From NCBI GenBank assembly GCA_010909725.1, contig JAACMV010000002.1, forward strand, positions 558,001 to 622,000: 64,000 nucleotides of DNA. Direction: 5' to 3'. Shown piece after piece: positions 6,748-26,947 of the stretch (positions within the stretch are counted from its first letter, which is position 1; every line of letters begins with the position of its first letter). The stretch is from Picochlorum sp. 'celeri' (taxonomy: Eukaryota; Chlorophyta; Trebouxiophyceae). The translations under genes were made by a program, and so were the position numbers. Under the pieces are notes generated by a model. The model was not told where the DNA came from, searched no databases, and saw nothing but the letters and a program-made list of their open reading frames with translations.

Positions 6748-7905
6748 TCAATACCCCCCATCAAACTCTGCATCTTCCAACTCAGGGAGAGGAAACCGCA
6801 GAATCGCAGCTATACCAGACAGCTGATTCAACTGCTCACCTGACGTATGCGCGCCTGAGAAAACAAACGCCTCTCCACCACCATGCCTCACATCATCTAC
6901 CAATTGCGTATATTTTGTCCTTAATATCGGATCTGCCGTTCTAAATAAGGAATCAGACAGCAACAACGACTGAATAGCACCCAGCTCATGCGCTGCCAAC
7001 ACATGTCCAGGTCCATAAAACGCCCTTGCTGGATCCGTCCCCATCATATGCATGAATTCCCCAAGTTTTTGTACTTCTTTCGCTGCCTTCGTATCTTTTA
7101 TTCGACTCGCCACCTCTGGCGATGCCAAAACTTCCTTGATAGCATGCTTGTATGGAGATGATGCATGCGCTATAATCATCTTGGGTCTATTCAGCAACAA
7201 ACTCTTCTCCTGCTGCCGCTGAGCCTCTGCATCAATATATCCCAGCAATGACTCTTTCACAAACCCAGGCCCAGCAATCACGAGACATTTAATCACATCC
7301 CAATCAATATGCTTGACAATCGATGCATAAATACGATTATAAAAATTAGTCATAGCCTTATCATACCCCGCCAATGCTGCCCCTCTCTTCTTCGGAATAC
7401 TTGCTTCGATTTTAGACTTGACTACAGTGCAACTCGCTCCAACCAAGCACACTATTGCATACCCTTCCGTCACCATGACAACTGCCACGTCAGCAGATGC
7501 ACCAGGATCCGTACTCTGCTTCACCCTATCCACATCCAACGCATCCCACGCCTCTTTCGTCAATGTCAACGCCCTATGCGGCTCCAACTCCAGTGTATGG
7601 TACGCTCCTAGTTTCACATGTTCATTCTCCGTCAGATTCTTTCCCTTGAGACGAATTTCCTGACCCTCACCATCATAATCAATATCCTCCACCCCCAACG
7701 TCAGCGTTATTCGTATCTTTTCCGTCTCTGTACTCGTCCCTCTATCCCTTGTAACTTTTCTATATGTATTCGCAGTCACTCGATCCCCTGTACGAATCAG
7801 ATTATACAGCTGCCACATGTCTTCAGAATCCTCCGGTATTAATTTCACACTCCCTTCTCCACCGACCTCCAATGTCGGCGTTTTCTTCGATGAAACCAAT
7901 TTCAT
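6748..7905 (-). CDS. PELO: Pelota/Dom34 ribosome rescue factor
   Basis: Cytosolic eRF1-like factor that works with the GTPase Hbs1 and ABCE1 to split ribosomes stalled in no-go and nonstop decay. It is one exon of 385 residues, matching the usual family length. All three eRF1-type domains are visible. The N-terminal Sm-like domain has EDMWQLYNLIRTGDRV and the basic KVTRD segment. The central domain has DVIKCLVIAGPGFVKE, and lacks the GGQ hydrolysis motif, as expected for Pelota. The C-terminal domain includes TDPARAFYGPGHVLAAHELGA and ends in an acidic tail. The ATG at 7905 gives the canonical MKLVS beginning. Confidence 0.95.
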   Translation of the reverse strand: MKLVSSKKTPTLEVGGEGSVKLIPEDSEDMWQLYNLIRTGDRVTANTYRKVTRDRGTSTETEKIRITLTLGVEDIDYDGEGQEIRLKGKNLTENEHVKLGAYHTLELEPHRALTLTKEAWDALDVDRVKQSTDPGASADVAVVMVTEGYAIVCLVGASCTVVKSKIEASIPKKRGAALAGYDKAMTNFYNRIYASIVKHIDWDVIKCLVIAGPGFVKESLLGYIDAEAQRQQEKSLLLNRPKMIIAHASSPYKHAIKEVLASPEVASRIKDTKAAKEVQKLGEFMHMMGTDPARAFYGPGHVLAAHELGAIQSLLLSDSLFRTADPILRTKYTQLVDDVRHGGGEAFVFSGAHTSGEQLNQLSGIAAILRFPLPELEDAEFDGGY

Positions 7906-8132
7906 GCTGTATGAAAATCTTCTTAATATGCTCAGATGCGCAACATGGACAATTCTGTGTCACTATTTGCACCGCATGCCCTGTGGTATCCAAAAAAAAC
8001 AACCTTTAATTTACAAATGTAATAATTACAACCGAATACGGCTATATATTACATACTATGCGGGTACTATTTTTAATTCAAAATTAATCGATTGCTGTGG
8101 GGTGGTACATCAAACTTGGCCTTGATGTGATC

Positions 8133-8155
8133 CAATTGTGGTATTACCACAATTG
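8133..8155. repeat. 11-1-11 inverted repeat next to a stop codon
   Basis: A perfect inverted repeat with 11-base arms around one T lies two bases beyond the stop codon of the minus-strand methyltransferase gene (stop at 8158-8160). In RNA it would form a hairpin at the very start of the 3' untranslated region. Confidence 0.75.
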
Positions 8156-8157
8156 CA

Positions 8158-9336
8158 TCATAAATCATGGGTGGTTGGCATTTTATGTCTTGAACATCTT
8201 GAAGACAGTCGTTCAATATACTCTGGTCCAATACCACAACATCCACCCAAGATTGTCACGTGATACTGCTCCACCCATTCCATACAAAGCTGAACAAATG
8301 CCTCTTCATCCAAATCCTGACGCATTGCCTGAGGCTCAGGATTCGATGCAAGCTCCCATGTGTCACTAATTTCTGTCAATTTATTTGGATACGCTCCCAA
8401 CGCCACACCCATATCATCCATCATACCCCGTACGGATCCCATATCACGCAACGCCAATGTAACATCTTCTGGACGGGAGCAGTTAAACAGTATCCCACAC
8501 AGCTGTATTCCCCATGCCCGCGCCTTTTCTAATATCTTTGCTGATGCTTCAGACGCAGTCTCTCCACTCCGTACACATCCTCCTCTCTTGACACACATGG
8601 ACACATATACCGGCTTTGTTGCATTGCCTTGTCTCCTCTTCCCACCAGTCTGTTCTTCTTCCATCTTCTGATAATACGAGTCATGGATGGCATGCAATGC
8701 CATGATGACTTCGTCAGAACTCGACAACGTCTCCGCCAACCACCCATCCACATACTCATCCATCACATCCACAATGCATTCCTTGTACACCCTGCGCCCT
8801 TCATCATGCCCCATCACCTTATCAGGACGATAACTCTCCACCAACGGCGGCAAACTCCCCAACACCTCTCTCTCCACACCATACACATCAGCAAACGTAG
8901 AAACAGCATCCCGCGCAATCCGTCCAGCAATCTGATTCAACTCCTTGATCGAATCCTCTGAAAACCCAACCCCAGGTGTGATGCCGAAATTGTTGCACGT
9001 CACATACATACTCCCAGCCTTTAGAAAAGACAGATGAACCTGCTTCAATGCCTCATGATATCGCTCCTCCTTCACCGCGATCGCAGACCAGATCATTCGA
9101 TCGTCAGGAACATGCCAGTTTTTAAACAACTCCTCTCCAGTTCCTCCGTCTAAAATCCGAACATGCTGAGCAGCATTCATTGCCCCCATCACTGATACTC
9201 CACAACAACGACTAGACGAGGAAGAAAAAAGCGAAGAAGAAGACGGCAACACGCCGAGGCGAGTACGTGCTTGGTACAACCCCAACACAATCCCGCAACG
9301 ACCTCTCTTCTCTCCCACTAAAAACCGAGAAAACAT
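8158..9336 (-). CDS. homocysteine S-methyltransferase family protein
   Basis: Zinc-dependent methyltransferase of the S-methylmethionine/homocysteine family, which transfers a methyl group to a thiol such as homocysteine. It is an open frame of 392 residues. The catalytic barrel begins near residue 60 with VRILDGGTGEELF. Zinc-ligand cysteines are visible in GILFNCSRPEDV and in the C-terminal GGCCGIGPEYI motif. VTCNNFGITPG matches the usual TNTF-type loop. The start is uncertain. The ATG at 9336 lies only 3 bases from the stop of the next upstream gene and gives a serine/arginine-rich extension that could be a transit peptide. The ATG at 9189 would leave a 150-base leader and a 343-residue protein of normal size. 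Confidence 0.85.
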   Translation of the reverse strand: MFSRFLVGEKRGRCGIVLGLYQARTRLGVLPSSSSLFSSSSSRCCGVSVMGAMNAAQHVRILDGGTGEELFKNWHVPDDRMIWSAIAVKEERYHEALKQVHLSFLKAGSMYVTCNNFGITPGVGFSEDSIKELNQIAGRIARDAVSTFADVYGVEREVLGSLPPLVESYRPDKVMGHDEGRRVYKECIVDVMDEYVDGWLAETLSSSDEVIMALHAIHDSYYQKMEEEQTGGKRRQGNATKPVYVSMCVKRGGCVRSGETASEASAKILEKARAWGIQLCGILFNCSRPEDVTLALRDMGSVRGMMDDMGVALGAYPNKLTEISDTWELASNPEPQAMRQDLDEEAFVQLCMEWVEQYHVTILGGCCGIGPEYIERLSSRCSRHKMPTTHDL

Positions 9337-9339
9337 GTA

Positions 9340-9834
9340 TTATTGTCGAAATACATCTGGTATATCAGCCCAGGTATACCCTTCGACATCCTTGTACGCG
9401 TAATACGCAATCCGAGAAACATACACCCCCGGAATAAGAACCAAGATCCCACACACCCACACACCAATCAAAGCAGACAGCCCCTCTGTCTGCCATAACA
9501 CCAACCCTGCAATCAGCATGGACACACCCAAAAGCATGAGTCCCATCGCAGAGAGCACAGGAGCCCTTGCCGATGCAGGAATCCTGGTGGTGTACCATGA
9601 CCACCACCTCGAGGTGGTGGTTCCATCATCATCAGGCATTGTCATCTCTTTTCTCACAGGAGTCGTCCCATTCAGGTATCTATTCTTTTTTACAGTGGTA
9701 TTCCGGCGTACTATAGTGTCTGAAAGAGTCGAGGACCTCCAGTCACCCTGAAACGCCTTCTCTTCGACTGTGTCTTCTCGGGTCGTATTCTTCTTCTCTT
9801 CCTGTTGTTGTTGATCAGGTATGAATGCTGACAT
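9340..9834 (-). CDS. TMEM230-like membrane protein
   Basis: Small two-helix membrane protein of the TMEM230/TMEM134 (DUF872) family, which in animals is associated with vesicle trafficking. It has 164 residues in one exon. The N-terminal 90 residues are polar with a glutamine run. Two hydrophobic helices follow at about 95-117 and 121-140. The family signature PGVYVSRIAYYAYKDVEGYTWADIPDV closes the protein. It is transcribed in the same direction as the methyltransferase and ends 3 bases before that gene's longest open frame. The assignment rests on the C-terminal signature and topology. Confidence 0.8.
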   Translation of the reverse strand: MSAFIPDQQQQEEKKNTTREDTVEEKAFQGDWRSSTLSDTIVRRNTTVKKNRYLNGTTPVRKEMTMPDDDGTTTSRWWSWYTTRIPASARAPVLSAMGLMLLGVSMLIAGLVLWQTEGLSALIGVWVCGILVLIPGVYVSRIAYYAYKDVEGYTWADIPDVFRQ

Positions 9835-9932
9835 GGGTCAACAGAATGTCATAATACTAGTAAGTCTTTTTTTACAGTAGTGTGGGGGTAGTGAATGAAT
9901 GTATTACCAAGCCTACACCTTGACATCTCTGC

Positions 9933-10070
9933 ATGGTCATATGACCATCCCAACTGGGATGATCATCATCATGACTCTTTTTTTATTATATACATATATA
10001 GTGGTATATAATATATTGTTACACAAACCCTCAAGGGTTTGATGGATCTATGCTACGTTCTGGAGCTCCA
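9933..10070. repeat. cluster of short palindromes
   Basis: Successive unrelated inverted repeats: ATGGTCATATGACCAT (perfect, 9933-9948), CATCCCA-AC-TGGGATG (9946-9961), GATGATCATC (perfect, 9958-9967), CAAACCCT-CA-AGGGTTTG (10024-10041) and TGGAGCTCCA (perfect, 10061-10070). The arms share no common sequence. Confidence 0.8.
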
Positions 10071-10213
10071 TCCAGGACATTTTTTTAATCATCAATTGCA
10101 ATGCGCTCAGGGCCCATACCCTTCTTCTTCAAGGGCTTCTTCACGGGTCCATTCTGTTTTTATTGTGCCAAGAACCAACTTTTCTCTCCGATTCATCCTA
10201 TGCACTTTTCATA

Positions 10214-13734: not shown

Positions 13735-15809
13735 TCATGCAAACATGGAGGTCAAGGTGAGTGATGGCTGGGCCAAGAGAGAGGAGCCGCCTAGCACAAT
13801 TTGAGGCATCTTCTTTTCCTGTGCATGATACTCCGCCACCATATGGTCACAATATGACCGTACGTGGGATATCTCATGAGGAGTTATTCCACCGAGGACA
13901 AACAGTACCACTGTCTCGTACTCTCCCGGATGATGATGTTGCAACCCTATTCTTCCTAGCCCGGATTTCAAAAGTCCTGCGATCGAGGTACCAATATGTT
14001 TCATGCTTGGCACATGACTTCCTGACATGACATCGTCCAGGAGCCTCAAGATGAGAGATTTCTCGCGTGGCCCTCTCTCTTGTGCGTTCAGGTCGTACTG
14101 AGCAGGTAAACTACATATTGTACCGATGACTTTTTGAGAGACTGGTTGCAAAAGAGTCTGCAGTGCGTCACCTTCCTCAGCACTCTCGACAATTTGATTG
14201 ATGAGATCATCCGACAACCAAGGGAGTTCCTTCTTGATCTTTTGAGATACATTGTCACAATTCTGTTTCCACCGAAAAATACACGCTGCAGACGACTCTG
14301 AGAGGGCTTCCCCCAGAATACTCTGCTGTGCTGCTGACAACACATCACTTTGTTGAACAGAGTAGTACGACGGGTTCGTTTTAATCCAATAACAACCAAT
14401 TATCAGGTGTTGCATGGATGCAAAAATACCATGTGGAGGGGGAGCTCCTCTGCCCGCTGCCATCAGTTCGTCCGTGATCAAGGCTACAAGCCCATCTGGA
14501 CCGTCTTCAGCACTGAGCTTTGCCACTTCTTCTGCCTTCTGCAATTCGACCCAATTTCCCTGCGCATCACTAGTTTCCATGAGGCATGCACATGCAATTT
14601 CCGCAATCTGAAGAATAGAAGCATGCTTTAAGCTCGCATCAGGATCCTGGTAAAGGACTGCAGATAAAGCCTGCAAATCCTCTGCAGAAACAGCTCCAGG
14701 TCTCATTCTACCTGAGAATTTGAGTTTCGACTCGCGTATAGCTTCTTTCAGCCACTTTCTAATAAATAATAAAGCTTCTTTGTGCGTTTTAGACATCAAA
14801 AAGTCGAGGTACGATTGTGATGATGGATCACTGGGATGGAACAGTGATGGACAGACATGTGAGGATGTTTCCAGGCAGGTTTTAGACTGAGACAACATCC
14901 TATGTATAAAATAGTCTGAATATTCACTAGCTGTAGCTGTATCCAAAGATCTATCTACAATGACGAAGGCCGCCCTTCTTCCATGAGAACTATCATGGGC
15001 TGGAATAAACGACATGGCCCTACCAACACTCTCAGCAAGGGGACCCACACAAAAGGCCTCCGGCTGCACATCTAAAATCCTAGACACAGATGCCAAAGAG
15101 TGAGCATTGACAGTCACTTTGACATGGACATCATCATCCGTATTATCGCTGTATTCATCTACTAGAAACGAAGCTGCACCATCTCTTGGAAACACAAACG
15201 CATGACTCCCAACCATCATGCAGGGAATATCCACGAATTTCACACGCACAACAAGCTCCTCTTGCACAGACTGTCCAATATTCTGACACGCCTCAATCAC
15301 ATTGACAAGAATGTTGCGTTCGATATCACCAAAACAATGCTCACCATACTCCCTGGGGCATGCTTCATGGTGAGCTGCTTCTGATATGTTCGAAATCACC
15401 GTGACATGCTTTGTATAGGGCGACACTATTCGAGCCACCTCGACAATATATCGCATCACGTTTTTTAATACATTCGAGCAGCACACGACAACCTGACTAA
15501 ATGACCCATGCCCAACAGCTGCTAGGGTGGGAATGGCCACCTCCTTCTCAGTATCCTCGAGCGCCACCACTCCCACAGCACCAAAATCTGCAACCCGTAA
15601 ATCACACCATCATCGACAGACACACAGAAGGGACACACATCGGGAAAAGTAGACGCACCAAGCAAGGCCTGCATACCAACACTAGCTTCCAACAACTCCC
15701 CAAAACCACGATCCACAACCAACAAGGTGCCCTCTGACAGCTCCCTCCCAATTCTTAAAATCACATCATCAAATTCCATCCCAGAAGAGACGCCATCAGC
15801 GCTATTCAT
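13735..15809 (-). CDS. Sec1/Munc18-like protein, SCFD2 type
   Basis: Divergent Sec1-family protein resembling Sec1 family domain-containing protein 2, a putative regulator of SNARE-mediated vesicle fusion. Exon 1 (15659-15809) and exon 2 (13735-15587) are joined across a 71-nt intron (GTGCGT donor, TTGCAG acceptor, phase 1). The junction reads MQALLDFGAVGVVALED, and the product is 667 residues. The N-terminal LLVVDRGFGELLE stretch, the central RAAFVIVDRSLDTATASE stretch (the Sec1 domain 2 strand) and the C-terminal VVLFVLGGITPHEISHVRS stretch are family hallmarks. It shares a 311-base divergent promoter with Nup88 and is convergent with CPSF100, with 40 bases between stops. Confidence 0.8.
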
Positions 15810-16120
15810 CGTTCTGAAGAGGTAGTCAGACCACAACTGAACTGTGTTTCATACGACATGAGCGTACAAGAACCAACATCCTGAGCATAACTGTACTCCC
15901 TTCTATATATAGTGAAATTTTGTTGACACAGCATCCCGGTGGAATAAAGATTTCTGCAATGGAAGAATTCAAACCAATTCTGACTATTTAAGGAATCTAT
16001 GTGGACAAGAGATCAAGGAATGGGATAGCTGCTGACGATTTCATACTATTTATTCATTATTGCAATACTCTAGTAAAACGATTGACTAACAACACAAAGA
16101 AAAGACCCGCTCCTGTGTCA
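15810..16120. other. divergent promoter region
   Basis: The 311 bases between the Sec1-like and Nup88 start codons include a TATATATAG stretch near 15904. No other element is recognised. Confidence 0.45.
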
Positions 16121-18522
16121 ATGGCTGGAGAATTAGAGTCTCTCTTGGGCGGGATTTTCTGGAACGACGACGGAGATGATATCCCTTCTGATTCTAGAGA
16201 GATTTTAAAATATAACTATTTGACAGGGAAGCTGTACGTTGACTTGAATGCCAAGGAGATTTTTATTTTTGGTTTTTCACCTTCCTTGCTGTGTGTGCGC
16301 ACAGGTTTGTTGTATGCGATGAAGGCACAATACGATATGCGAATGCTCGAGAAGGTATATTGAAAGATACATGGCCTTTGGGCGAGCGGCGTCGTGCAGA
16401 GGAGACGACAGGATCAATGTCTGTCGGCACTCTGCAGCCTGTTCCGGACGTTGAAATCAACGTCGAGAAATGCGTGATGAACAAGAGTGGGACGATTGCT
16501 GTGGTGGCTGGTACAACAATGAGGGATCCTGAGATAAGCGGAGCAATGTTGATTGATGTCGGAGCTCCTGGTGGGAGATTGGGGAATGAGGTGTCTGCAA
16601 CAGAGATTGACAGCAAGTTGTTCGAATCTCGTCCTGGTTTGCATGTGACTCACATGGAATGGCATCCAGACAGTGAGCACCATGTTGTTATATTGATATC
16701 GGATAATGTACTGAGGCTGTATGACTTGGAGCAGCCAGATTTTGCAGAACAGATATTTGAGTTGAAATCTCAGAGGCTTAGTTTGAAGATTGAGGAAGAG
16801 GATACCGATTGGAATGACCCTGTACCGATTTCTTTTGGATTTGGTAGAGGGAGTGGTTGGAGTCGAGTATCGATCGTGATTCTCATGTCTGACGGGAATC
16901 TAAAGACCCTGTGCCCAGTGATTCCCTTTGGTGCAAGGTATTCTGGCAGATGGATTGCTGGCGTTATTGATACATGCGGCTCGGTAGGGGAGAGAAAATA
17001 TGATGAGAGTATGATGTGGATTCATAAGGCTTTTGACATAGAGGCGAATGATCTTGATGAGAAGACAATGTACAGGGTTGTACCCCATGCTCTGGAATCT
17101 CATGTCCCAAGATTATCACCATCCTTGAGAATAGAGTCGAATGTGGCAGAGAAGGATAAAGATTCTGCTTTAGGTTTTCAGGTCTCAGCATTTCATACAT
17201 GGCATATTGGAGCGAGCTTGCTTGGAGTGGCAATGGCATCAGAGACTGGAATGCTGAGAACTGGTGTCGTGACAACTAGTATTTCACCGCTGTGGGCATG
17301 TAATCCTCCTCAGTGTATTTTTAGAGGAGGCTCTATTGCAGCTGTACGATCTCAATGTGTAGATCAAAGGTTATTGGATGCAGAACATAGATATTCTAGT
17401 GCAAGTTTTGTTGTGATTGATGACATTGTCTTGCCGGATGGGTCTCGTGCAGAGTCAACATCATATGGTGAAGGAGCCCCGTATGATATTCCCAAACTTC
17501 GATCGGATAACATATCAATCTTAAGAGATACAGCTTCTCCAGCAACATTACTCGTCTGTCAGCAGCATCTAGTCCACAGTGTGACTCTGGCATGGGCACC
17601 TCTTTTGGGAGATCATGTGTCCCATTGGGTGGATGATGTAGAACGAAAACCATTGCCAGATGTCTTACCATTCCCATCTGTAGTTGAAATACATCATGTA
17701 GATAAGAATGCTAGTCCCATGGTGAGCCATGCAGTGATAGGGGACAAATTGAGCGGGTCTGCTATGTTGAGTGTCATGTCGGATGGTACATACATGTTGA
17801 ACAAAATTGCCCCAAAGCCCTCAACGACTACACCCATTACTCAGGGTAGCTTGGTCGATTTTGAAAGCAGGAGAAAGGAGATTGAGGACCATGTACAAGC
17901 CATGTATGCACCAATTACAGCAATGCCATCTCCAGGCCAGTCACTCCAATTTGACAGGTCTGCACCAGTAGATTCGCCTCAAAACTACAGGGCATTAGTG
18001 GAAAGTATTGCTTCGCTGAGATCAAGCTATATAGAATTCTGTCACAAGGCTGAATGCACGACAGCAGATAGACTGGATTTCCTCAAGGATGAAGTGTCAC
18101 AGCAATTTGAAAAAGTAGAAAAAATTGCCAATGTGTTGGAGCAGATAGAGAAAAAACAAAAGACTCTGCGCTATCGCCAGGATAAAGTGCAGTTTATGGC
18201 ATCTAATATAAATGACAGAGTGAAATTATTGGCAGAACTGCATTGGGCAGTTCCTCAACCAGCATCTGAAGCCGAGAAGCACTTCCAACACCATGACCTG
18301 CCCATGCTGGAGTCAAACACGGCATCATTAGCTCAAGAGGTAGCTATGCTCCGATCCCAGGCGCAAGCAATAAAACAATCAGGGAAAGTACAACAGACAC
18401 ATGGCACTGCTTCCAAAGCCTCACCAAGTGATTTGCGAAGAATCAGGGAAATGCTATCAGAACACGACACCATCATTAGAGATATGTGCCGAAAGGTGCG
18501 AGCCATCGAGTCCAGTGTATAG
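16121..18522 (+). CDS. NUP88: nucleoporin Nup88 (MOS7)
   Basis: Component of the cytoplasmic Nup214 complex of the nuclear pore; in plants known as MOS7. Exon 1 (16121-16233) ends in codon phase 2 and exon 2 (16305-18522) completes a leucine codon, giving GKLFVVCDEGTIRYA. The intron is 71 nt (GTACGT donor, CACAG acceptor), and the product has 776 residues. Residues up to about 480 form a beta-propeller-like region with HVTHMEWHPDSEHHVVILISDNVLRLYDL, a WD-like pattern. The C-terminal third is predicted coiled coil, starting near VDFESRRKEIEDHV and rich in E/K/Q heptads up to the end. Domain order and length match the family. Start choice: MAGELESLL is the first ATG in frame after a stop. Confidence 0.9.
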
Positions 18523-18938
18523 TGTTGTGTCTTCCTGCCGTGTATGAAGAGGATGTAAAAAAAATGCCCTGATTTTTATATATCTTATCTAACAAGACCG
18601 AGGAGATCCCCGACTGTAGCTTGCAGCCCTTTTTGTAAAGGTGAAAGTACTGCGAAGAACACCAGATAGAATTCTATATCTGGCATCTTTCGATCGAATG
18701 TAACTTTGTTACGGAGACGTTTGGGGGATCAGTTGCAAGTATTGGCGCCATGATCGACCGAAAGTAATCAACATAAAAGATTGCTTACACTATACGCATG
18801 TAAGATATGCAGGCAATCAAGAAAAAAAAAATTTTTTTGCAGTGGCCTCTTCAACTTTGGCAACTTCTTCTTTCCGTCAATGCGAAAATATGACGTGCAC
18901 ATCCGTATATTCCAAACCAGGCCACTCCATTCTGTGTC
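18523..18938. other. convergent 3' region
   Basis: This 416-base spacer lies between the stop codons of Nup88 and the secreted protein. A TGTAA pentamer (18554-18558) lies 32 bases after the Nup88 stop. A near-perfect palindrome, CCAGATA-GAATTCTA-TATCTGG, spans 18662-18683, with an inner perfect TAGAATTCTA. No gene is seen. Confidence 0.5.
18554..18558 (+). terminator. TGTAA poly(A) signal of NUP88
   Basis: The chlorophyte-type pentamer TGTAA lies 32 bases past the stop codon. Assigned by position only. Confidence 0.4.
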
Positions 18939-19625
18939 TCACAGGGAGAGCATGGCAACAAGAGTGCAGCCAACCACTGCCCACAGGCTGCCAACAAAAG
19001 CCCCCGCAGATGCCTCTGTTGCTGCAGTTCCCATGGATCCATCCATATCTCCATGATCGTGCCCATCATCTGCACTGTGATCCATATCCCCATCCATGGA
19101 GCCGCCCATGGCCATCCTCATGGACTCGGTCCCAGTGCCTTCATAGCAATCTCCATCTTCAGCAAAGGTCAAAGGTCCATATGCGCTGACTCCATCAGTC
19201 GTGTTTACCACAGCAAAGATGTGTCCCATACACATGTGACCAGCCAATTGCAACGCATTCGTCATGTTCCTCTCTTCTTTGAACAAAGTTGGCATATTCT
19301 CAGCCTTGATGGCGCTGTCGGCAAAGGTACCATTATACGTGAGAATGGCCCCACCATCAACCTCCACTGGCTCCTTTTGCAGATCCAAATCCACCAGATT
19401 GGTGAGCACAGGGTTCAAAGCATCACCTCTGCGGTCGGCAATTTCTGCCGTCAACAGCGACTCGGTCGAATTCAGCGTCCAGGTCCACTCTCCGTCGTGA
19501 ATGTACGCTTGTACTTCACCGATGGAATCTCCATCATTCGTCTTCAATTCAGTGACGAAATACGTGTGAGCGGACGCATATCCAGCCAAGCAGGCGAAAA
19601 GAAGTGAAATGATAACGCTCTTCAT
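18939..19625 (-). CDS. secreted or surface-anchored acidic Met/His-rich protein
   Basis: Not recognised as a known family. The protein has 228 residues in one exon. A clear signal peptide covers residues 1-19 (MKSVIISLLFACLAGYASA), followed by His-Thr at the mature end. The extracellular part has several N-glycosylation sequons (NST, NGT, NMT, NTT). Near residues 130-160 lie HMCMGHIF and CYEGTG. From about residue 165 a segment rich in Met, His, Asp and Gly (MRMAMGGSMDGDMDHSADDG, HDHGDMDG) resembles metal-binding tails of copper-handling proteins. The last 20 residues are hydrophobic after a small-residue stretch, which fits a GPI-anchor signal or a transmembrane anchor. Metal binding is inference from composition only. 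Its promoter side faces the hairpin-tiled spacer. Confidence 0.7.
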   Translation of the reverse strand: MKSVIISLLFACLAGYASAHTYFVTELKTNDGDSIGEVQAYIHDGEWTWTLNSTESLLTAEIADRRGDALNPVLTNLVDLDLQKEPVEVDGGAILTYNGTFADSAIKAENMPTLFKEERNMTNALQLAGHMCMGHIFAVVNTTDGVSAYGPLTFAEDGDCYEGTGTESMRMAMGGSMDGDMDHSADDGHDHGDMDGSMGTAATEASAGAFVGSLWAVVGCTLVAMLSL

Positions 19626-20391
19626 GTCCGTCGCGCAAAATCTGTCTCTGTTCTAAAGGTTCTGTTTGTTACTCGTGCAAAACGAATCAATAAAAAAAAT
19701 ATCAAACCATACACTGTACTTGCCAACGTGATGGGATGAAATAACCGATCGAGCGTCGTCCAGATCTACGAGATCTGACCAGATTATCTGGTCCAGATAT
19801 CCGCGGATATGTCCGTAGCGCCGGCGCCGGCGCCATGCGCATGGCCTATCCATATGGATCCTATATAGATATATAGGATCGATCGATCGCGATCGCGATC
19901 TCCAGATGCAGAGATCGGATGGACTCCGTCATGTGGAGTCAACATTGTGGACCGCCCATAGCGGTAGTGCGCACCAAATCATATGATTTGGCCATGCATG
20001 GCGCCATAGCACAGTGAACTAGCATGTACAACTGTACATGCATGCAGTATATGTACTGCCACTCGTGGCGATACCGTTATCGCCATATCGATCGATGTAT
20101 GTGATATAGTATACCTATATATTACTCCACATTTCGGATCGGACATGTCCAAGTTCCTAAACTTGCCAATTGTCACATGACATTAATGTCGACGGTGGCA
20201 ATTCTGCCGTTCTAGAACGTTCACTCGATGGAGTGAACTCTTCGATCGGAGAATTCGGCCGTGGCCGACGTTCTTCCATGCATCAACGGAGCATGCCCAT
20301 TATCCTGATAAACACGTGAGGCATGCGCCTCACCTGCACAATATAATTCAGTTTTTTATCTTTGAAAACTTACTACAAACAAATTAACAAA
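19626..20391. other. hairpin-tiled spacer between secreted-protein gene and rbcS
   Basis: The 766-base divergent spacer has no coding sequence. Its central 570 bases consist of back-to-back short inverted repeats (next entry). The last 50 bases before rbcS are AT-rich, with an ATATAATT stretch at about 20341-20348, plausibly the core promoter and leader of rbcS. Confidence 0.7.
19761..20333. repeat. tiled array of unrelated palindromes upstream of rbcS
   Basis: At least twenty short inverted repeats follow each other with almost no gap or with shared ends. Examples (arm-loop-arm): 19761-19777 (7-3-7), 19777-19793 (7-3-7), 19797-19810 (perfect 14), 19818-19833 (perfect 16, GC only), 19832-19845 (perfect 14), 19848-19859 (perfect 12), 19857-19880 (10-4-10), 19897-19916 (6-8-6), 19922-19940 (6-7-6), 19951-19965 (5-5-5), 19974-19991 (perfect 18), 19991-20002 (perfect 12), 20022-20041 (9-2-9), 20044-20059 (6-4-6), 20058-20069 (5-2-5), 20067-20084 (7-4-7), 20104-20120 (6-5-6), 20141-20150 (perfect 10), 20151-20164 (5-4-5), 20179-20190 (perfect 12), 20208-20219 (perfect 12), 20219-20238 (8-4-8), 20255-20268 (6-2-6), 20316-20333 (7-4-7). 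Arms differ from unit to unit, so structure rather than sequence is repeated. Confidence 0.9.
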
Positions 20392-21083
20392 ATGGCTTCT
20401 ACTATCGCTGCTTCATCTGTCGTTATCGCTCCAAGAGCTGCTGCTTCTTTCAAGCCAGCCGGAAAGACTGCCGCCAAGGCCAGCATTGTCAACAACCGCG
20501 TTGCTGCCAAGACCAATGCTTTCCAGGTATGATTTACATGTTTATTGAAGCACAGTTTATGACACGCGTGAGCTCCAATGCGCGACGTTCCAAGTCAGCG
20601 CCTCGGTGCACTCCGCCAATGTGAACAAGGCGCTAACCCTCTTTGTTTTTCATCATGCAGGTGTGGAACCCAATTGACAACAAGTTCTTCGAGACTTTCT
20701 CTTATCTCCCACCACTCTCTGAGGAGGAGATCATCAAGCAGGTCGACTACATTGTCCGCAACGGATATACTCCATGCTTGGAGTTCTCTTCCCCAGAGAC
20801 TGCCTACGTCAAGTCCACCAACACTGGACGTATGTCTGGAGGAGTGACATGCAACTACTTCGATAACCGTTACTGGTCTATGTGGAAGTTGCCAATGTTC
20901 GGATGCACTGATGGAGCCCAGGTTGTGACTGAGATCAAGGCTTGCACCAAGGCCTTCCCAGATGCTTACATCAGACTTGTTGCTTTCGACAACGTTAAGC
21001 AGGTGCAGTGCTCTCTCCTCTTGGTCCACCGCCCAACTGGTGCCAAGGACCACCAGTCTCCAGAGAAGCGCTCTGTTGCATAA
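20392..21083 (+). CDS. rbcS: RuBisCO small subunit, plastid-targeted
   Basis: Nuclear-encoded small subunit of ribulose-1,5-bisphosphate carboxylase/oxygenase, imported into the plastid stroma or pyrenoid. Exon 1 (20392-20526, 45 codons) encodes an alanine/serine/lysine-rich transit peptide, and exon 2 starts at 20661. The 134-nt intron (GTATGA donor, ATGCAG acceptor, phase 0) falls just at the mature start, giving [22 protein letters not shown]. The product has 185 residues. The hallmark stretches [33 protein letters not shown] and [11 protein letters not shown] are present. Codon choice is strongly biased (CCA, GGA, AAG, and C-ending two-fold codons), unlike its neighbours, as expected for very high expression. 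It is the best marker of the green lineage in this window. Confidence 0.97.
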
Positions 21084-21187
21084 GTGATCCAGGTATAAAC
21101 AAGGGATGAAAAAATATCAAATCTAATCAAAATTTTACAATGTATATGATACTCTGACATGTACTCCATTCGATATGACAAATGGCA

Positions 21188-21192
21188 TGTAA
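21188..21192 (+). terminator. TGTAA poly(A) signal of rbcS
   Basis: TGTAA lies about 105 bases after the rbcS stop codon, in the short convergent spacer before the thioredoxin gene. Positional assignment only. Confidence 0.35.
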
Positions 21193-21245
21193 AATATGTA
21201 TGATTGTTACAGTTGTTCTTATTCATAGTGTACATGGAGTCGGAA

Positions 21246-22011
21246 TCACTGACTCATTACAGTTGATGGTGCATCATCTGCACTGTCCTCTACTTTGGAG
21301 GACAAAGAGGGATGAATATCTGGATATTCGTTCAAATATATATCCTCGTTCCCTTTCAAATAACATCTTGGAGACTTGTGCAGCTCGATACCATCCTTCA
21401 GTCTCGCAATCTTACTAATGGAAGCTGTCATTTCTCCAACCCGTCCGCTTGGTCCTCTGTAAAAGTGGAAATATGGCAGGACTTTCACCCCTAATCCCTT
21501 TGCCATTTTTCTATTATCCTCAAAATTTAACATGAGAAATTTGACATCTTCATGAAATAGACACAGCTTTTTCAACTTGTGGAATAACGCTTTGCAAGCT
21601 CCACACCAAGGAGCAAACACTTCAAGCACCACGAGCTGATCATTTCTAGATGCCTCTGCCAGCTCATCAACAAGTTCTTGTACGGTGGAGATATGAGTCA
21701 CGTTCTCTGGTACATCTTTTGTCCACCAGCCTCCTCCCTCTTCACCTTGGGCCGAGGTCGCCGCGGTCGTTGTCCCTCCGCATCGTCTCAAAAGCTGCTG
21801 CTGCTGCTGCCTGTGGAGTTGACTACAGAGAAAGTCAGGGTTACAGCGGTCAACAATGGTTTTCCCCCACTATGAATAGACAATAAAATTTGTATAAAAT
21901 CACACACCGCGGCAGTTGGGTCAAAAGACGCTGTGGCCTCGTCTGAACGAATCGCTGCCCTACGATGCAACTACTCTGCCCCAAGGGCGCTGATACACGG
22001 GTTGGCTGCAT
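21246..22011 (-). CDS. atypical thioredoxin (ACHT-like), probably plastid
   Basis: Thioredoxin-fold protein of the plant atypical Cys/His-rich type, which transfers oxidising equivalents in chloroplasts. Exon 1 (21908-22011) and exon 2 (21246-21810) are joined across a 97-nt intron (GTGTGT donor, CCACAG acceptor, phase 2, CG+G = Arg), giving 222 residues. Residues 1-65 are basic with a five-glutamine run, as in a transit peptide. The thioredoxin domain starts near residue 75 with the redox motif FAPWCGACKALFHKL, followed by VKFLMLNFEDNRKMAKGLGVKVLPYFHFYRG with the conserved cis-proline. The WCGAC site differs from the canonical WCGPC and is closer to ACHT proteins. It is convergent with rbcS. 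Confidence 0.8.
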
Positions 22012-22180
22012 GGAGCGACAGGGTGTCTCAATATCAAATATTTCAACTATTTTTATACGATATATGATTTCAGAAGAGGAACATTCAACACCTTCAACTC
22101 TGTCTGAACTTTTCTTTTTCTTCCTATTTAAGGTTTTATCATCTGAAATAAAACCTCGAGACCATGAATGACACTGTATT

Positions 22181-23719
22181 CTACAACTCCAGAGCTAACG
22201 CAAGGATACTACATCCCACTCCGAGCAGCAGGACTGTCAGCGGAACACAAACAAATGTCACAATGTCCATGACCTTGGCAAACACATTGGGTCTCTCAGC
22301 AAGGTGGCTCACATGAGGATACCTATTCAAATGATCCATCTTTCCCTGTTGTTGTTTCCGCGTCGTGAGATGATTTCTGATTCTGTCTTCCTGAATGTAC
22401 ACTGAGCTTGTATTTCTTTGAATAGCACCGTGGGATTCCTCATGGTCATCATCTTCCTGCTCTTCCAACTGGGCAGCATCTTCCAAGAGCCAAATCTGTG
22501 CCTCGTGGTTGGATACCTCTCGTCGTACGGATCCGAAAAAATAAAGCCTTAGATGCACATATATAGGTAATATATACCCGATAATACATACTGCTGTCGC
22601 CCCTGTTATTGAAAAGAACATTGCAGACTCTTTTGGATATGTACCTGCAACCATGGTTGGGACTCCAATGCAACAGACTGTGGTTATGACATGCCTACGT
22701 GTTGAAACATCAAGCATGGATGTGCTATCCTCATCACCCTGACTGATAGAGTAGACAAGATAACGCATGGCAAGTACAATGGGTGCCATGCTGACTGAGA
22801 GATATATTGCTACAGCCACATCCAAGAAGGGTGCATATGCATCAGGCAGCCAATCATTCATAATAATATCTCCTTGCACCTTGTGACCATATCTCATTCC
22901 AGAAAAAAGCCCCAAAGATGTATATGTAAACATACCAACACCAAGGGTAACAATGCGTAGGGCTGAGCAGGTGACAACAAGACCTGTAGGATTCTGGGGC
23001 ATTTCAGAGAGGAGAGGCAATAACACTGGGTGCAGATAGAACGCAAAGCTCAATATAGCGATTGATTGAGGAATCTGAGATCTGTACTCCACTGGAATAG
23101 AAAATAGAGGGAAATCCCCATTCATGAGGGCTGGGAACCCAGACGAGATGCAATTATATGCAACGATGCAGACGAGGGAGATGACGAGAAGGATGCCAGC
23201 AGCAGCAGCTCTTTCTAAAGATCTCATCTGCCGTTTCAGAGACAATGGGAACACAAAGGCTAGTATTAAAAGAATCATGGGCCAGCGAGAATCCTTCACA
23301 AATACTTCTGGAACATAATCTGCAACAAACTGCATTGACATGGATCCACAGTCTGCCAGCAGGGCTGCATCACCAGTAAGTGTTCCAAATAATAATAAAA
23401 ACATGGCCGCCTGGGCGATCAACTTCATGCTAGAGCCTTTTCCAGGACCAACCATGGCACACATGCCTTCATACGTGTATGGAGGACCTTTATCCAATAC
23501 ATACGATGCTACGAGTACAATATTACCAGTATAATTATTTGCCAGTGCCACGAAGAAGGCAAAGCTTACACCCCAGAAAAGCCCCAGATTTGAAAAGGCA
23601 AACCCAACAGGCAAACAGCTGGACCCAAGTATCCCAAGAGACAAGGTCAAAACGCTTGCCCAATACGCTGACGACTCACTCGTAGAACAAGGTGAGGGCA
23701 AGGGTGGTGTCTCAGCCAT
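22181..23719 (-). CDS. amino acid/auxin permease family transporter
   Basis: Polytopic membrane transporter of the AAAP/SLC38-like superfamily, probably moving neutral amino acids with protons. Single exon of 512 residues from the ATG at 23719. An N-terminal cytosolic stretch is followed by the first membrane helix with LSLGILGSSCLPVGFAFSNLG, the unwound glycine-containing helix typical of the fold. Eleven hydrophobic segments can be counted. A long acidic cytosolic loop (about residues 395-465, containing EEQEDDDHEE) separates the tenth and last helices. Substrate and membrane (plasma, vacuole) cannot be decided from sequence. Confidence 0.8.
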   Translation of the reverse strand: MAETPPLPSPCSTSESSAYWASVLTLSLGILGSSCLPVGFAFSNLGLFWGVSFAFFVALANNYTGNIVLVASYVLDKGPPYTYEGMCAMVGPGKGSSMKLIAQAAMFLLLFGTLTGDAALLADCGSMSMQFVADYVPEVFVKDSRWPMILLILAFVFPLSLKRQMRSLERAAAAGILLVISLVCIVAYNCISSGFPALMNGDFPLFSIPVEYRSQIPQSIAILSFAFYLHPVLLPLLSEMPQNPTGLVVTCSALRIVTLGVGMFTYTSLGLFSGMRYGHKVQGDIIMNDWLPDAYAPFLDVAVAIYLSVSMAPIVLAMRYLVYSISQGDEDSTSMLDVSTRRHVITTVCCIGVPTMVAGTYPKESAMFFSITGATAVCIIGYILPIYVHLRLYFFGSVRREVSNHEAQIWLLEDAAQLEEQEDDDHEESHGAIQRNTSSVYIQEDRIRNHLTTRKQQQGKMDHLNRYPHVSHLAERPNVFAKVMDIVTFVCVPLTVLLLGVGCSILALALEL

Positions 23720-24157
23720 GGCTATCAAAAAGGAGCACTTGGGCTGTCAAGCAACCTAAACCTGCAATGCAGTCACTGGTCCATATCCCGTATCAATATT
23801 GATTTTTAATCAACAGTGTCCGATTGTATCCGTGGCATCCATGTCGGAATGATTGGAACCTAGGCAGCATGGAGACGTTAAATGTTCTTTTTACGGAGGG
23901 ATTGCGACGCTGCCGGAGATAGAGAGTCGAGCTTTTCTTTTCACATATTAAAATTTAAATGTAATTTACACGTAGGAGTAGCCTCCAGATGAGAAGAGAC
24001 TAAGCAACGTTGACTAAAACATGGGATGTTCGGCGTAGAAAATAATTTTTAAACTCTTGCGTGCTCCAGAGAATTATTTGCAGGCGTTTGCCCATTGTAA
24101 AAATAACATATTTTTATAGTGGTGATTCCCTGTATAAAACTGGTCGCAAAGAATCCG
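23720..24157. other. divergent promoter region
   Basis: The 438 bases between the permease and SET-protein start codons are AT-rich around 23940-24120. No inverted-repeat cluster of the kind seen elsewhere was found here, and no gene. Confidence 0.45.
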
Positions 24158-26947
24158 ATGGGAGAGTTGGTTATGACGCAGCAGCAGGAACAGGGTGGTC
24201 GGGAACGTGGTCGGGAGGATTGGGTCTGCTGCGATGGATGTGGAAAATGGAGACGGGTTCCAGAGGAATTCGTTGCATCTCTAGATGACGATGCGCCGTG
24301 GTTCTGTTGGGATAATCCTGATGTTGCCTTCAACTCTTGTGAAACTCCTCAGGAGTTTACAGATGAAGAAATAGATGCTATTCAGAACAGAGAACATGCC
24401 CAAGCCACGAATGGATATGTTCGAGGTAAAAAGAGACCAGCAGTGTGGCAGTTGATCAAGACGAATTTGTATCCCCACAGGAGTAAGAAGCAGCAGGACG
24501 AAGATGAGATTATGGTGTGCCAGTGTAAGGATTCAGATGAGGATCCTTGCGGGGAACATTGCTTGAATCGAATGTTGAACATCGAATGTGTAGAGAAGTA
24601 TTGTCCAAATGGTTCCAGGTGCCTCAATAGAGCTTTTTCTCAAAGAAGATATGCATCTCTGGAGGTTCGGCGGGCTGGGAAGAAGGGATTTGGGCTATAT
24701 GCCAAAGAGGATTTGAAAGCTGGGCAATTTATCGTAGAATACGTTGGTGAGGTTCTAGATGAAGAAGAATATATGCGAAGAAAACAATTTTATGAAGCGT
24801 CACACCAGCGCCATTATTATTTCATGAACATTGGGAATGGAGAAGTTGTGGATGCAACAAGGAAGGGTGGTTTTGGAAGATTTATCAACCACTCGTGCTC
24901 ACCGAACTGTGAGACTCAGAAATGGGTGGTTCAAGGAGAGCTTTGCATTGGATTGTTCACGCTTGTGGATGTGCCAGCTGGCACCGAGTTGACATTTGAT
25001 TATAATTTTGAGAGGTATGGAGATAAGCCTGTCAAATGTCTGTGTGGATCCGCTCAATGTAGAGGGTTGATTGGTGGAGAGAAGGAGACGAGTGAATCTG
25101 TTGGCGTAACAATCACAGCGACTGAGGAAGAGGAGGATTTGGAACCAATCATGGTGACAGAAAATGAGGAAGATGACACGCTTGGTGATATTCTTGATAG
25201 AGTGATTGGGCTTGGTTGGGAGGATGGATGGACACCTTCTCTTCAGAAAAAGCTTGAGAATCTAGCAGAGAGTCGTGGTCTTACATTGCCCGCATACAAG
25301 GGACCTGCTAATGGGCCTTCTGTCGATGATGAATCCTTCCTGAGAGCCGCTGCCGAGTCTGCTTTTTCTGCCGTTCCTGAAAGCGCAAGGAGAGCGAAGA
25401 GCAGATTTTCATCAAAGACGCAAAGAAGCAATATGCATGATCCAGACTGGAAAGATCCTGGGGATGTTGAACAACAGGTAAAGAAGGGTGCACGAAAGAG
25501 GCAGCCAGCAACGAGTACTGTTACCAAGGGTGCAGGAACAGTTGTGCAGAATCGAACCTTTGTGCCCAGGTCTGAAGTGCAGCGAAGACTTGAATCCATG
25601 ATTGGTAAATCTGGAAGATTGAAAGAAACTGGCAGCAAGAGTGTGGTTCAATTTTTACGGCTTTTTAATCTGTGTGATTTAGGTACCACAGTAATGGAGG
25701 GCAAAACAGAGGGTGAGACACTCAATGGAGATTTCAAAGGCAAAGACGGGGCTACACATAAGAATCCTGAGAGAGAAATAACGCGCCAGAGAGCTAGAAT
25801 TGTTGATATATCATTGTTGATTGATGTGATCATCAGGACGGATGGGTTGACTGCAAAACACAAGTTTGTTGAATTGGGCCTGCTCCGTCAATTAGTTCCG
25901 ATCATGATACACAAGACGGGATCTTTGGAAGGCGAGCACGTTGTCATTATCAGAAAAGCCTTGAAAGCAATAGAAATGCTCCCTTTCAGTGCTGACGTAG
26001 TCACTCGAACAAGATCTGCCCATGGCACGTTTGAAGACATCCTGAAGGCGTTGGCAAGTCATACAGATTACGAAATTAGAAACAAGTCATGGGTCCTTTT
26101 GAAAAAGTGGTCTTTGTCGCTTGATTCGGTAAAATCCAATAGATCGTACAATGATGCTCAAGGACGAGCTGGCAGGTACAGGTCACATGGGTCTTCCACA
26201 TTTTCCCCATTGCACAGCAATAGAACCCCATCAATGAACAGGGAACAATATGGAGGATATAGACAGCAATCAAATGATTCCATGCGCTCTCATGAATTTT
26301 CCAGCTATTCCACGGAGAGATCCAGATCTAATGGACACAGGGGATACCATGAGGGAAAAAAGCGTGAGCGTCCAGAAACTGAGTCTCTGGGCAAGAAACG
26401 AAGTAGATGGGACGAGAAGAAAGAAGAACAAATTTTACCTCCTCCTGCTCCTGAACTATCTCCTATGACAGACGAGGAAGAACCAGAAGAAGGCATTCTG
26501 ACCGAAGAGAAGAAGGAGGTGCAGGGGACAATCAAAAAGGTTGACGAAACAAAGAAACCTGATATCCTAGCATCTGCCGCGCTGGAATTGATCAGCGATC
26601 CATTTGATGGCGCATCAGCAAAATCTGCGCTCCAAATGAAAGTTGTCGGAACTGAGAAAAAGACCTGGAAGTACCCTAATGAAGACTTTGAGAAATTTGT
26701 CATCAATGTGATTCGAAGCAGACTAAGCAAGTATGAGAAACCTGGACATCCGCTACAATTGAAGAGAGATCAAGCAGCAACATTGTTCAGCAAAATACGA
26801 AAAGACATCATGATACGGGAAAAAGCGGCCTACAAAGAACGTGAGTCTACAGGAATGAGAAAGCCAATTGAGAAGGAGAAAACAGAAGCAAGGATAAAGT
26901 CCTACGTGAAAGACAGAGTTCAACGATTCTTGGCACAAGAAAAGTAA
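24158..26947 (+). CDS. CW-type zinc finger SET domain histone H3K36 methyltransferase
   Basis: Nuclear histone methyltransferase of the SETD2/SDG8 (ASHH2) class. Single exon, 929 residues from the first ATG. Residues about 20-65 form a CW zinc finger (DWVCCDGCGKWRRV...WFCWDN...CETP), which reads methylated H3K4. An AWS domain with spaced cysteines follows (CQCKDSDEDPCGEHCLNR), then the SET domain with NHSCSPNCE and the catalytic tyrosine in FDYNFERYG, and a post-SET CLCGSAQC. Around residues 530-650 is a helical segment (HKFVELGLLRQLVPIMIHKT, NKSWVLLKKWS) that resembles the TFIIS N-terminal/LW domain. The C-terminal 120 residues are charged helix, including a KDRVQRFLAQEK end. Together these suggest coupling to elongating RNA polymerase II. 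Confidence 0.9.
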   Translation: MGELVMTQQQEQGGRERGREDWVCCDGCGKWRRVPEEFVASLDDDAPWFCWDNPDVAFNSCETPQEFTDEEIDAIQNREHAQATNGYVRGKKRPAVWQLIKTNLYPHRSKKQQDEDEIMVCQCKDSDEDPCGEHCLNRMLNIECVEKYCPNGSRCLNRAFSQRRYASLEVRRAGKKGFGLYAKEDLKAGQFIVEYVGEVLDEEEYMRRKQFYEASHQRHYYFMNIGNGEVVDATRKGGFGRFINHSCSPNCETQKWVVQGELCIGLFTLVDVPAGTELTFDYNFERYGDKPVKCLCGSAQCRGLIGGEKETSESVGVTITATEEEEDLEPIMVTENEEDDTLGDILDRVIGLGWEDGWTPSLQKKLENLAESRGLTLPAYKGPANGPSVDDESFLRAAAESAFSAVPESARRAKSRFSSKTQRSNMHDPDWKDPGDVEQQVKKGARKRQPATSTVTKGAGTVVQNRTFVPRSEVQRRLESMIGKSGRLKETGSKSVVQFLRLFNLCDLGTTVMEGKTEGETLNGDFKGKDGATHKNPEREITRQRARIVDISLLIDVIIRTDGLTAKHKFVELGLLRQLVPIMIHKTGSLEGEHVVIIRKALKAIEMLPFSADVVTRTRSAHGTFEDILKALASHTDYEIRNKSWVLLKKWSLSLDSVKSNRSYNDAQGRAGRYRSHGSSTFSPLHSNRTPSMNREQYGGYRQQSNDSMRSHEFSSYSTERSRSNGHRGYHEGKKRERPETESLGKKRSRWDEKKEEQILPPPAPELSPMTDEEEPEEGILTEEKKEVQGTIKKVDETKKPDILASAALELISDPFDGASAKSALQMKVVGTEKKTWKYPNEDFEKFVINVIRSRLSKYEKPGHPLQLKRDQAATLFSKIRKDIMIREKAAYKERESTGMRKPIEKEKTEARIKSYVKDRVQRFLAQEK

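What the first reader, a model, noticed from the sequence alone, without database searches (positions are those of the whole stretch)
19761..20333. A 570-base spacer made of tiled, unrelated palindromes in front of rbcS
More than twenty inverted repeats (perfect ones of 10-18 bases, hairpins with 5-10 base arms) follow each other with near-zero gaps, and some share end bases. Arm sequences differ from unit to unit, base composition ranges from pure GC to pure AT, and there is no consensus. That is not a satellite, a transposon terminal repeat or a normal promoter. It suggests selection or a mutational process acting on self-complementarity itself, for example a structured RNA, a cruciform-forming boundary element, a replication or recombination signal, or palindrome-creating template switching. 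It sits on the promoter side of both rbcS and a secreted-protein gene.
Basis: seen in the sequence. Interest (0 to 1): 0.9.

Follow-up and report, generated by a model that had tools for sequence, protein, structure and literature searches.

The report
Palindrome-packed spacer before algal rbcS
A stretch of about 570 bases in front of a green-alga Rubisco small-subunit gene is packed with unrelated short palindromes far beyond chance, and the two chromosome copies differ in ways that look more like a local DNA-rearranging habit than a structure being preserved.

Summary
In 19761-20333, 33 inverted repeats cover 67% of the bases; 500 dinucleotide shuffles gave a mean of 2.8 and a maximum of 9. 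Of 10,995 overlapping 250-bp windows outside the tract, none exceeds 0.36 coverage, against 0.776 here. The host is very probably Picochlorum celeri, whose assembly is a phased diploid, so contig C22 supplies the second allele. (1) A whole-genome DNA search finds only the tract and its allele; the four other rbcS contigs lack it. (2) Loop-free palindromes with arms of 5 or more outnumber one-base-loop ones 18 to 2; background 305 to 305. At arms of 6 or more it is 12 to 2 against 125 to 81, p 0.09. This leans against RNA hairpins or simple foldback copying. (3) Five arm substitutions between alleles all break pairs, none is compensated, and C22 lacks whole palindromes; power is low. (4) Other non-coding DNA shows a milder excess, 125 against 51.6 expected. 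I favour a local palindrome-making repair or replication process in a divergent promoter, with palindrome-provoked deletion eroding it. Without an outgroup the direction of change is unproven.

The parts
19761..20333 (.). palindrome-tiled spacer
   Evidence: 33 inverted repeats, 67% coverage, z 15-18 over dinucleotide shuffles; lists and tiling
19777..19793 (.). palindrome GACCAGATTATCTGGTC (arm 8, loop 1); lost in the C22 allele by a 14-bp length difference between CCAGAT direct repeats
19797..19810 (.). perfect palindrome, arm 7; one base shorter in C22
19818..19834 (.). GC-only palindromic run (GCGCCG unit, 2.8 copies); one 6-bp unit fewer in C22
19857..19880 (.). longest palindrome, arm 11, 2-base centre; three clustered allelic substitutions at 19865, 19871, 19875
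19877..19900 (.). overlapping GATC/CGATCG palindromes sharing ends
19974..20001 (.). abutting palindromes CCAAATCATATGATTTGG and CCATGCATGG; a 17-bp length difference in C22 removes one half of each
20022..20085 (.). run of close or end-sharing palindromes (20022-20041, 20044-20059, 20058-20069, 20066-20085)
20208..20238 (.). end-sharing palindromes CGTTCTAGAACG and GTTCACTCGATGGAGTGAAC
20307..20318 (+). GATAA followed by CACGTG, 85 to 74 bases before the rbcS ATG; resembles the I-box/G-box pair of plant rbcS promoters (motif names recalled)
20392..20529 (+). rbcS exon 1 (match to residues 1-46)
20649..21083 (+). stretch holding rbcS exon 2 (match to residues 42-185, 20649-21080, plus stop)
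   Evidence: joined protein hits PF00101 RuBisCO_small, E 1.4e-37
18939..19625 (-). divergent ORF of 228 aa with a signal-peptide-like start (by eye); no Pfam family at E 0.001

Best explanation
The tract is non-coding DNA between two divergent genes in which a local mutational process has repeatedly written short, loop-free inverted duplications of whatever sequence was there, and in which the palindromes then provoke deletions. Shown: extreme density, unrelated arms, an excess of dyad centres between bases rather than on them, no compensatory change between the two alleles, and whole palindromes present in one allele and missing in the other. Inferred: the writing step is two-fold symmetric and needs no loop, for example hairpin-capped break ends opened off-centre, so that the end is copied in reverse complement (as P nucleotides arise in antigen-receptor joining, recalled), or strand exchange between sister copies at short self-complementary words; and the individual palindromes have no function of their own. 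Strong transcription or breakage at the rbcS promoter may be why it is worst here; that step is a guess.
For: Density and uniqueness. Arms independent of one another: repeated 7-10-mers no more frequent than in 300 random palindrome strings. Even-centred symmetry: loop-0 arms of 5 or more number 18 (11 non-overlapping) against 2 (1) with a 1-base loop; rest of the window 81 to 77, Fisher p 0.0007 (0.0065 non-overlapping); about 243 kb of sampled DNA 305 to 305, p 0.0004 (0.006). Loops 0, 2, 4 against 1, 3, 5 with arms of 6 or more: 21 to 4 against 269 to 218, p 0.006. Alleles: 3 indels of 4 bp or more in 573 bp against 1 in about 9480 bp of flank, p 0.0007. The extra 17 bp of C2 equals the reverse complement of the 9 bases on its left, the reverse complement of the 5 on its right and a 3-base duplication, CAT. 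Arm bases are not clearly spared: 5 changes of 335 arm bases against 6 of 238 others, p 0.54. A weaker excess of the same kind exists in other non-coding DNA: arms of 6 or more, loops 0-4, 125 observed against 51.6 (mean of 10 shuffles); loops 5-6, 18 against 18.4. Template switching has been reported to create and maintain hairpins (PMC8794818, listing and passages) and to homogenise arms (PMC8604942, listing and passages).
Against: No outgroup for this locus, so the allelic differences may all be losses; then creation itself has not been seen. The even-centre excess depends on the cut: with arms of 6 or more it is 12 to 2 against 125 to 81 in sampled DNA, p 0.09, because sampled DNA itself leans to loop-free palindromes there. 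In C22 it is weaker (non-overlapping 9 to 2, p 0.06). Loop bases changed more than arm bases (3 of 49 against 5 of 335, p 0.07) and mismatches lean to dyad centres (6 of 11, p 0.034), as a folded structure would predict. In the template-switch study, instantaneous compensatory changes were enriched in hairpins with four-base loops (PMC8794818), which gives no reason for loop-free centres; the hairpin-opening route is recalled and untested here. Why one spacer should be filled and not all is unexplained. The tract is less diverged between alleles (1.9%) than the 135 bp to its left (6.7%), which could mean constraint. Not every change breaks symmetry: in C22 the change at 20008 lengthens a palindrome and the change at 19865 makes a new one, ATCTAGAT (by eye).
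Confidence: 0.42

Rival explanations
1. Selected DNA-structure element: the spacer is kept rich in cruciform- or hairpin-forming palindromes to absorb supercoiling, exclude nucleosomes or insulate two divergent promoters; any palindrome will do, so sequence drifts.
For: Exact placement between divergent genes, ending about 60 bp before the rbcS ATG; strong DNA folding z -8.3; mismatches lean to the central two pairs, the loop of a cruciform, 6 of 11 against 25% expected, p 0.034; loop bases changed more than arm bases, 3 of 49 against 5 of 335, p 0.07; tract less diverged than its left flank. [quoted passage not shown]
Against: Cruciform stability gives no reason for even centres (a 1- or 3-base centre should be as good, my inference), yet they are 18 to 2 with arms of 5 or more. 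Five of 5 arm substitutions break pairs without compensation and C22 lacks several palindromes. The other rbcS loci have nothing like it.
Confidence: 0.22
2. Dense array of sites for homodimeric transcription factors, each palindrome a different dimer site, making rbcS strongly light- and stress-responsive.
For: Two-fold symmetry without a loop is what many dimer sites have. GATAA and CACGTG occur 85 to 74 bp before the ATG. Palindromic hexamers frequent in the tract are weakly the commoner ones in other non-coding DNA (rank correlation 0.24-0.25, p about 0.05).
Against: No repeated motif; hexamers of the tract are hardly more enriched in other non-coding DNA (observed/expected 1.17) than those not in it (1.09); arms up to 11 bp exceed usual half sites (recalled); rbcS paralogues of the same genome do without such a tract.
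Confidence: 0.14
3. Dyad-rich point centromere or replication origin of this chromosome.
For: Dyad-rich DNA is said to mark centromeres (PMC7531349, passages). Picochlorum sp. SENEW3 has one Hi-C centromere per chromosome, of unknown type, in the section read (PMC11092101, section 16). One tract in about 273 kb sampled, allelic copies included, does not contradict one per chromosome. It lies 0.58 Mb into a 1.39-Mb contig.
Against: It sits inside the promoter region of a presumably very active gene, a poor place for a kinetochore (recalled). No second tract on another chromosome is in hand; sampling was far too thin to find one.
Confidence: 0.05
4. Structured non-coding RNA or long leader RNA.
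For: RNA folding z -7.4.
Against: No Rfam match at gathering threshold; loop-free palindromes predominate; few G-T mismatches (3 of 11); no compensatory change between alleles.
Confidence: 0.04
5. Assembly error, contamination or engineered DNA such as a polylinker.
For: The palindromic hexamers look like a list of restriction sites.
Against: Present in both haplotypes with 1.9% divergence and different indels; no match in the plasmid or phage collections at the sensitivity used; flanked by the same genes on both contigs.
Confidence: 0.02

Closest known systems
Template-switch hairpins (PMC8794818, listing and passages) and inverted-repeat arm homogenisation (PMC8604942, listing and passages)
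   Same: Local copying in reverse complement makes inverted repeats or perfects their arms and clusters substitutions; the three clustered changes at 19865-19875 could be such a cluster.
   Different: The passages I saw describe single hairpins, with four-base loops enriched among instantaneous compensatory changes; here some two dozen tile one spacer and many of the strong ones are loop-free and even-centred.
Short perfect inverted repeats enriched in intergenic DNA (census in PMC13155455, passages)
   Same: Non-coding, short loop, zero spacer favoured in eukaryotes.
   Different: Eukaryotic cases are described there as AT-rich and repetitive; here arms run from 17% to 100% GC, are unrelated, and the density is about 14 times that of the alga's own sampled non-coding DNA.
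Palindromic repeats of green-algal organelle DNA such as Volvox (PMC2670323, search listing only)
   Same: Green algae, non-coding DNA rich in palindromes.
   Different: Those are spoken of as repeats that appear to be selfish elements; here no two palindromes are related beyond chance and the DNA is nuclear.
Dyad-rich centromeres (PMC7531349, passages)
   Same: High dyad density in a short stretch.
   Different: No evidence of centromere function; it is in a promoter region.

Membership tests
Structured RNA with conserved base pairing | compensatory changes in stems | tested here: not met
   0 compensated among 5 arm substitutions between two alleles; low power
Structured RNA with conserved base pairing | match to a known RNA family | tested here: not met
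   no Rfam match in the window at gathering threshold
Transposon or dispersed palindromic repeat | related copies elsewhere in the genome | tested here: not met
   only the tract and its allele match in the whole genome; the search skips simple repeats and very common words
Satellite or tandem repeat | head-to-tail related units | tested here: not met
   only two 17-bp runs of 6-bp units
Template-switch hairpin | new inverted repeat explained as reverse complement of adjacent sequence | tested here: inconclusive
   the extra 17 bp in C2 fits, but deletion in C22 fits as well; no outgroup
Dyad-rich centromere | CENH3 occupancy or centromeric Hi-C contacts | not testable with these tools
   no ChIP or Hi-C data at hand
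Homodimer transcription-factor array | recurring motif shared with co-regulated promoters | tested here: inconclusive
   no recurring word inside the tract, little shared enrichment elsewhere (1.17 against 1.09; rank correlation about 0.25, p about 0.05); co-regulated promoters were not compared systematically
Cruciform-forming promoter element | extrusion in vivo | not testable with these tools
   only predicted folding

The most novel reading that the evidence does not exclude
A so far undescribed, loop-free, two-fold symmetric process writes short palindromes of arbitrary sequence into nuclear spacer DNA of this alga, weakly in many spacers and massively at one rbcS promoter, so that self-complementarity itself is the product.
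Probability: 0.22. Interest if true: 0.85.

Novelty: new variant of a known kind. Interest (0 to 1): 0.6.

Why it matters
If a mutational process makes loop-free palindromes without a consensus, this locus, with two sequenced alleles differing by whole palindromes in a transformable alga, is a natural laboratory for it. If instead self-complementarity is selected, it would be a sequence-free promoter or boundary element. Either way it warns that structure scores alone do not show a functional RNA.

Tried and rejected
Repeat family: rejected, only the allele matches. Vector or phage DNA: no match. Structured RNA: see rivals. Shared lexicon of dimer sites: little support. Long-range templated copying within the tract: not above a palindromic null. 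An outgroup: viral contigs gave none. The one scan of prokaryote genome contigs gave one algal contig filed in a bacterial MAG (L037), but it is the counterpart of the other rbcS locus (84% over 5.2 kb to C28), and a search of that MAG with window 18800-21200 found that contig alone. Four LHC-gene stretches (of 42 PF00504 matches; L033-L036), mostly upstream, partly intron, were read: one, L035, has several inverted repeats within about 105 bp, but it is not among the 23 places listed as densest. A covariance model of generic hairpins for a genome scan was considered and not built, because I expected sequence filters to lose it. Whole-genome density could not be measured; about 273 kb outside the tract was examined, including some allelic copies.

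Full report
What was checked. The spacer 19761-20333 was read and its inverted repeats listed. With arm at least 5 (loop 0) or at least 6 (loop 1-8) there are 33, covering 67% of 573 bases; 500 dinucleotide-preserving shuffles average 2.75 (sd 1.65, maximum 9), z = 18, and coverage z = 15. In the window and the sampled parts of the genome nothing comes near: the best 250-bp window outside the tract has 0.36 coverage (window 9926), against 0.776 in it; 10,995 overlapping windows were counted, those around the tract and its allele left out.

Where it is. The window lies in a 27.41-Mb, 30-contig assembly. The published phased diploid Picochlorum celeri assembly is 27.43 Mb in two sets of 15 scaffolds, 46% G+C, SNP heterozygosity 0.8% (PMC7225527, part 1 of 2 of the text); the window is 45.4% G+C. 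I infer the host is P. celeri or something very near. Contigs C2 and C22 are then homologous chromosomes: over window 15000-24865 they differ by 72 substitutions, about 0.7% (my sum of the twenty 500-bp bins). The genome search finds three pairs of rbcS places: C2/C22, C28/C6 and C8/C17. Only C2/C22 has the tract; 10-kb stretches of the four other contigs reach at most 0.196 in 500-bp windows. The gene is rbcS (PF00101), with a divergent 228-aa ORF on the other side that has no Pfam family.

What kind of symmetry. Loop-free palindromes with arms of at least 5 number 18 in C2 (11 non-overlapping); palindromes centred on a base number 2 (1). The rest of the window has 81 and 77: Fisher p = 0.0007 for all, 0.0065 for non-overlapping; in C22 13 to 2 (p 0.012), non-overlapping 9 to 2 (p 0.06). 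Against about 243 kb of sampled DNA (305 to 305, from the tables) p = 0.0004 and 0.006. With arms of at least 6 the tract has 12 to 2, but sampled DNA itself leans the same way, 125 to 81, so p is only 0.09; taking loops 0, 2, 4 against 1, 3, 5 with arms of at least 6 it is 21 to 4 against 269 to 218, p 0.006 (non-overlapping 16 to 3, p 0.016). With mismatch-tolerant scoring at least 5, even to odd is 24 to 3 in C2, 18 to 4 in C22, 120 to 124 in the rest of the window and, counted per centre without thinning, 522 to 568 in 272,678 bases. The even-centre excess is thus good but not overwhelming, and neighbouring palindromes are not independent. Hairpin-forming RNA, cruciform stability and simple strand foldback have no reason to prefer even centres (my inference). 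Mismatches inside even dyads: 3 of 11 are G-T, so no sign of G-U pairing; 6 of 11 lie in the central two pairs where about 25% is expected from simulated uniform decay, p 0.034, weak support for unpaired loops.

Independence of the units. Words of 7-10 bases shared across the tract, direct or inverted, are no more frequent than in 300 random strings of palindromes. 27 of 64 palindromic hexamers occur, 49 in all against 8.7 expected from background. Palindromic hexamers of the tract are scarcely more enriched in other non-coding DNA than the rest (1.17 against 1.09); the rank correlation is about 0.25, p about 0.05. I see no hidden motif.

The two alleles. The tract has 11 substitutions (1.9%) and 4 indels (14, 1, 6 and 17 bp), all four shorter in C22; the 135 bp to the left has 9 substitutions (6.7%) and the 59 bp to the right none. 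By C2 annotation 5 substitutions are in arms (335 bases), 3 in loops (49) and 3 outside (189). Arms against all else: p = 0.54; arms against loops: 1.5% against 6.1%, p = 0.07, which leans towards constrained arms or mutable loops and so against my reading. All five arm changes are paired in C2 and unpaired in C22 (by eye); three of them (19865, 19871, 19875) are in one palindrome and may be a single event. Against this trend, the change at 20008 lengthens a palindrome in C22 and that at 19865 makes a new 8-bp one there (by eye). No change is compensated. Indels of at least 4 bp are 3 in the tract against 1 in about 9480 bp of flank, p = 0.0007. The 17-bp difference can be read two ways: as insertion in C2 of the reverse complement of the 9 bases to the left, the reverse complement of the 5 bases to the right and a duplicated CAT; or as a deletion in C22 between CAT repeats near the centres of two abutting palindromes. 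The 14-bp difference is bounded by CCAGAT repeats and looks like slippage across a hairpin. Without an outgroup I cannot choose.

Is it only here? In 43.3 kb of non-coding segments (106 segments by a rough open-frame rule, tract left out), inverted repeats with arm at least 6 and loop 0-4 number 125 against 51.6 (mean of 10 shuffles); loops 5-6 number 18 against 18.4. So the alga's spacers carry a milder excess; the tract has 24 such repeats in 573 bp, about 14 times the non-coding density. Sequence under the open-frame mask also shows more loop-0 than loop-1 repeats with arms of 6 or more (91 to 54); no shuffles were made for it. Weaker clusters lie at window 9926 and 7901 and in L018 and L025.

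Search for relatives. The protein database was switched off. Viral contigs gave nothing. Among prokaryote genome contigs, one 603,575-bp contig filed under a Crocinitomicaceae MAG is algal and carries the counterpart of the C28 rbcS locus, 84% identical over 5.2 kb; the tract was not found in that MAG. In 250-bp windows L037 shows nothing above 0.24.

Interpretation. The facts that any account must meet are extreme density at one place, unrelated arms, an excess of even centres without loops, lack of compensation, and instability between alleles. A local process that writes loop-free inverted duplications, followed by palindrome-provoked deletion, meets most of them, and I put it at 0.42. (On checking, the weaker parity at arms of 6 or more and the loop-against-arm counts made me lower this from 0.45, raise the selected-structure rival from 0.20 to 0.22, lower the novel case from 0.25 to 0.22 and lower interest from 0.62 to 0.60.) Its writing step is inferred; hairpin-capped ends opened off-centre would give the right symmetry (recalled from P nucleotides; a review states that hairpin-capped ends at palindromes are opened by MRX-Sae2 in yeast or Artemis in human cells, PMC7999016, passages). 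Selection for DNA structure or for dimer sites remains possible; an endogenous RBCS2 promoter drives a marker gene in P. celeri (PMC8172913, passages), but I could not tell whether that is this locus. A centromere is a long shot, noted because SENEW3 centromeres are mapped by Hi-C with their type unknown (PMC11092101, section 16).

Print status. I found no paper on this tract: the searches in the open-access library listed none by title or abstract start, and in three P. celeri papers the word search found palindromes only in the name CRISPR. Subscription papers were not searched.

Noticed in passing
L037 (JAGYIR010000010.1, 603,575 bp): A contig filed in a bacterial MAG (Crocinitomicaceae bacterium M30B20) is, over the 5.15 kb read, nuclear DNA of a Picochlorum-like alga, 84% identical to contig C28 (561 kb); possibly most of a chromosome of a sister species.
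   Followed up: partly
window 9600-9621 and 9926-10175: A 22-bp perfect palindrome, ACCACCACCTCGAGGTGGTGGT, and a weaker cluster of palindromes, the densest place outside the tract in the sampled DNA (0.36 coverage).
   Followed up: partly
window 7901-8150: Next densest inverted-repeat cluster (0.336), just beyond the 3' end of a minus-strand ORF (8158-9336).
   Followed up: no
window 19865-19875: Three of the eleven allelic substitutions of the tract fall within 11 bases of one palindrome, suggesting one multi-base mutation.
   Followed up: partly
window 19626-19760: The 135 bp beside the tract differ by 6.7% between alleles, far above the local 0.7%.
   Followed up: no
L035 83-187 (near an LHC gene on C2): Several inverted repeats, some odd-centred, within about 105 bp of an upstream region.
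   Followed up: partly
window 20307-20318: GATAA followed by CACGTG close to the rbcS start, like the plant I-box/G-box pair (names recalled).
   Followed up: partly
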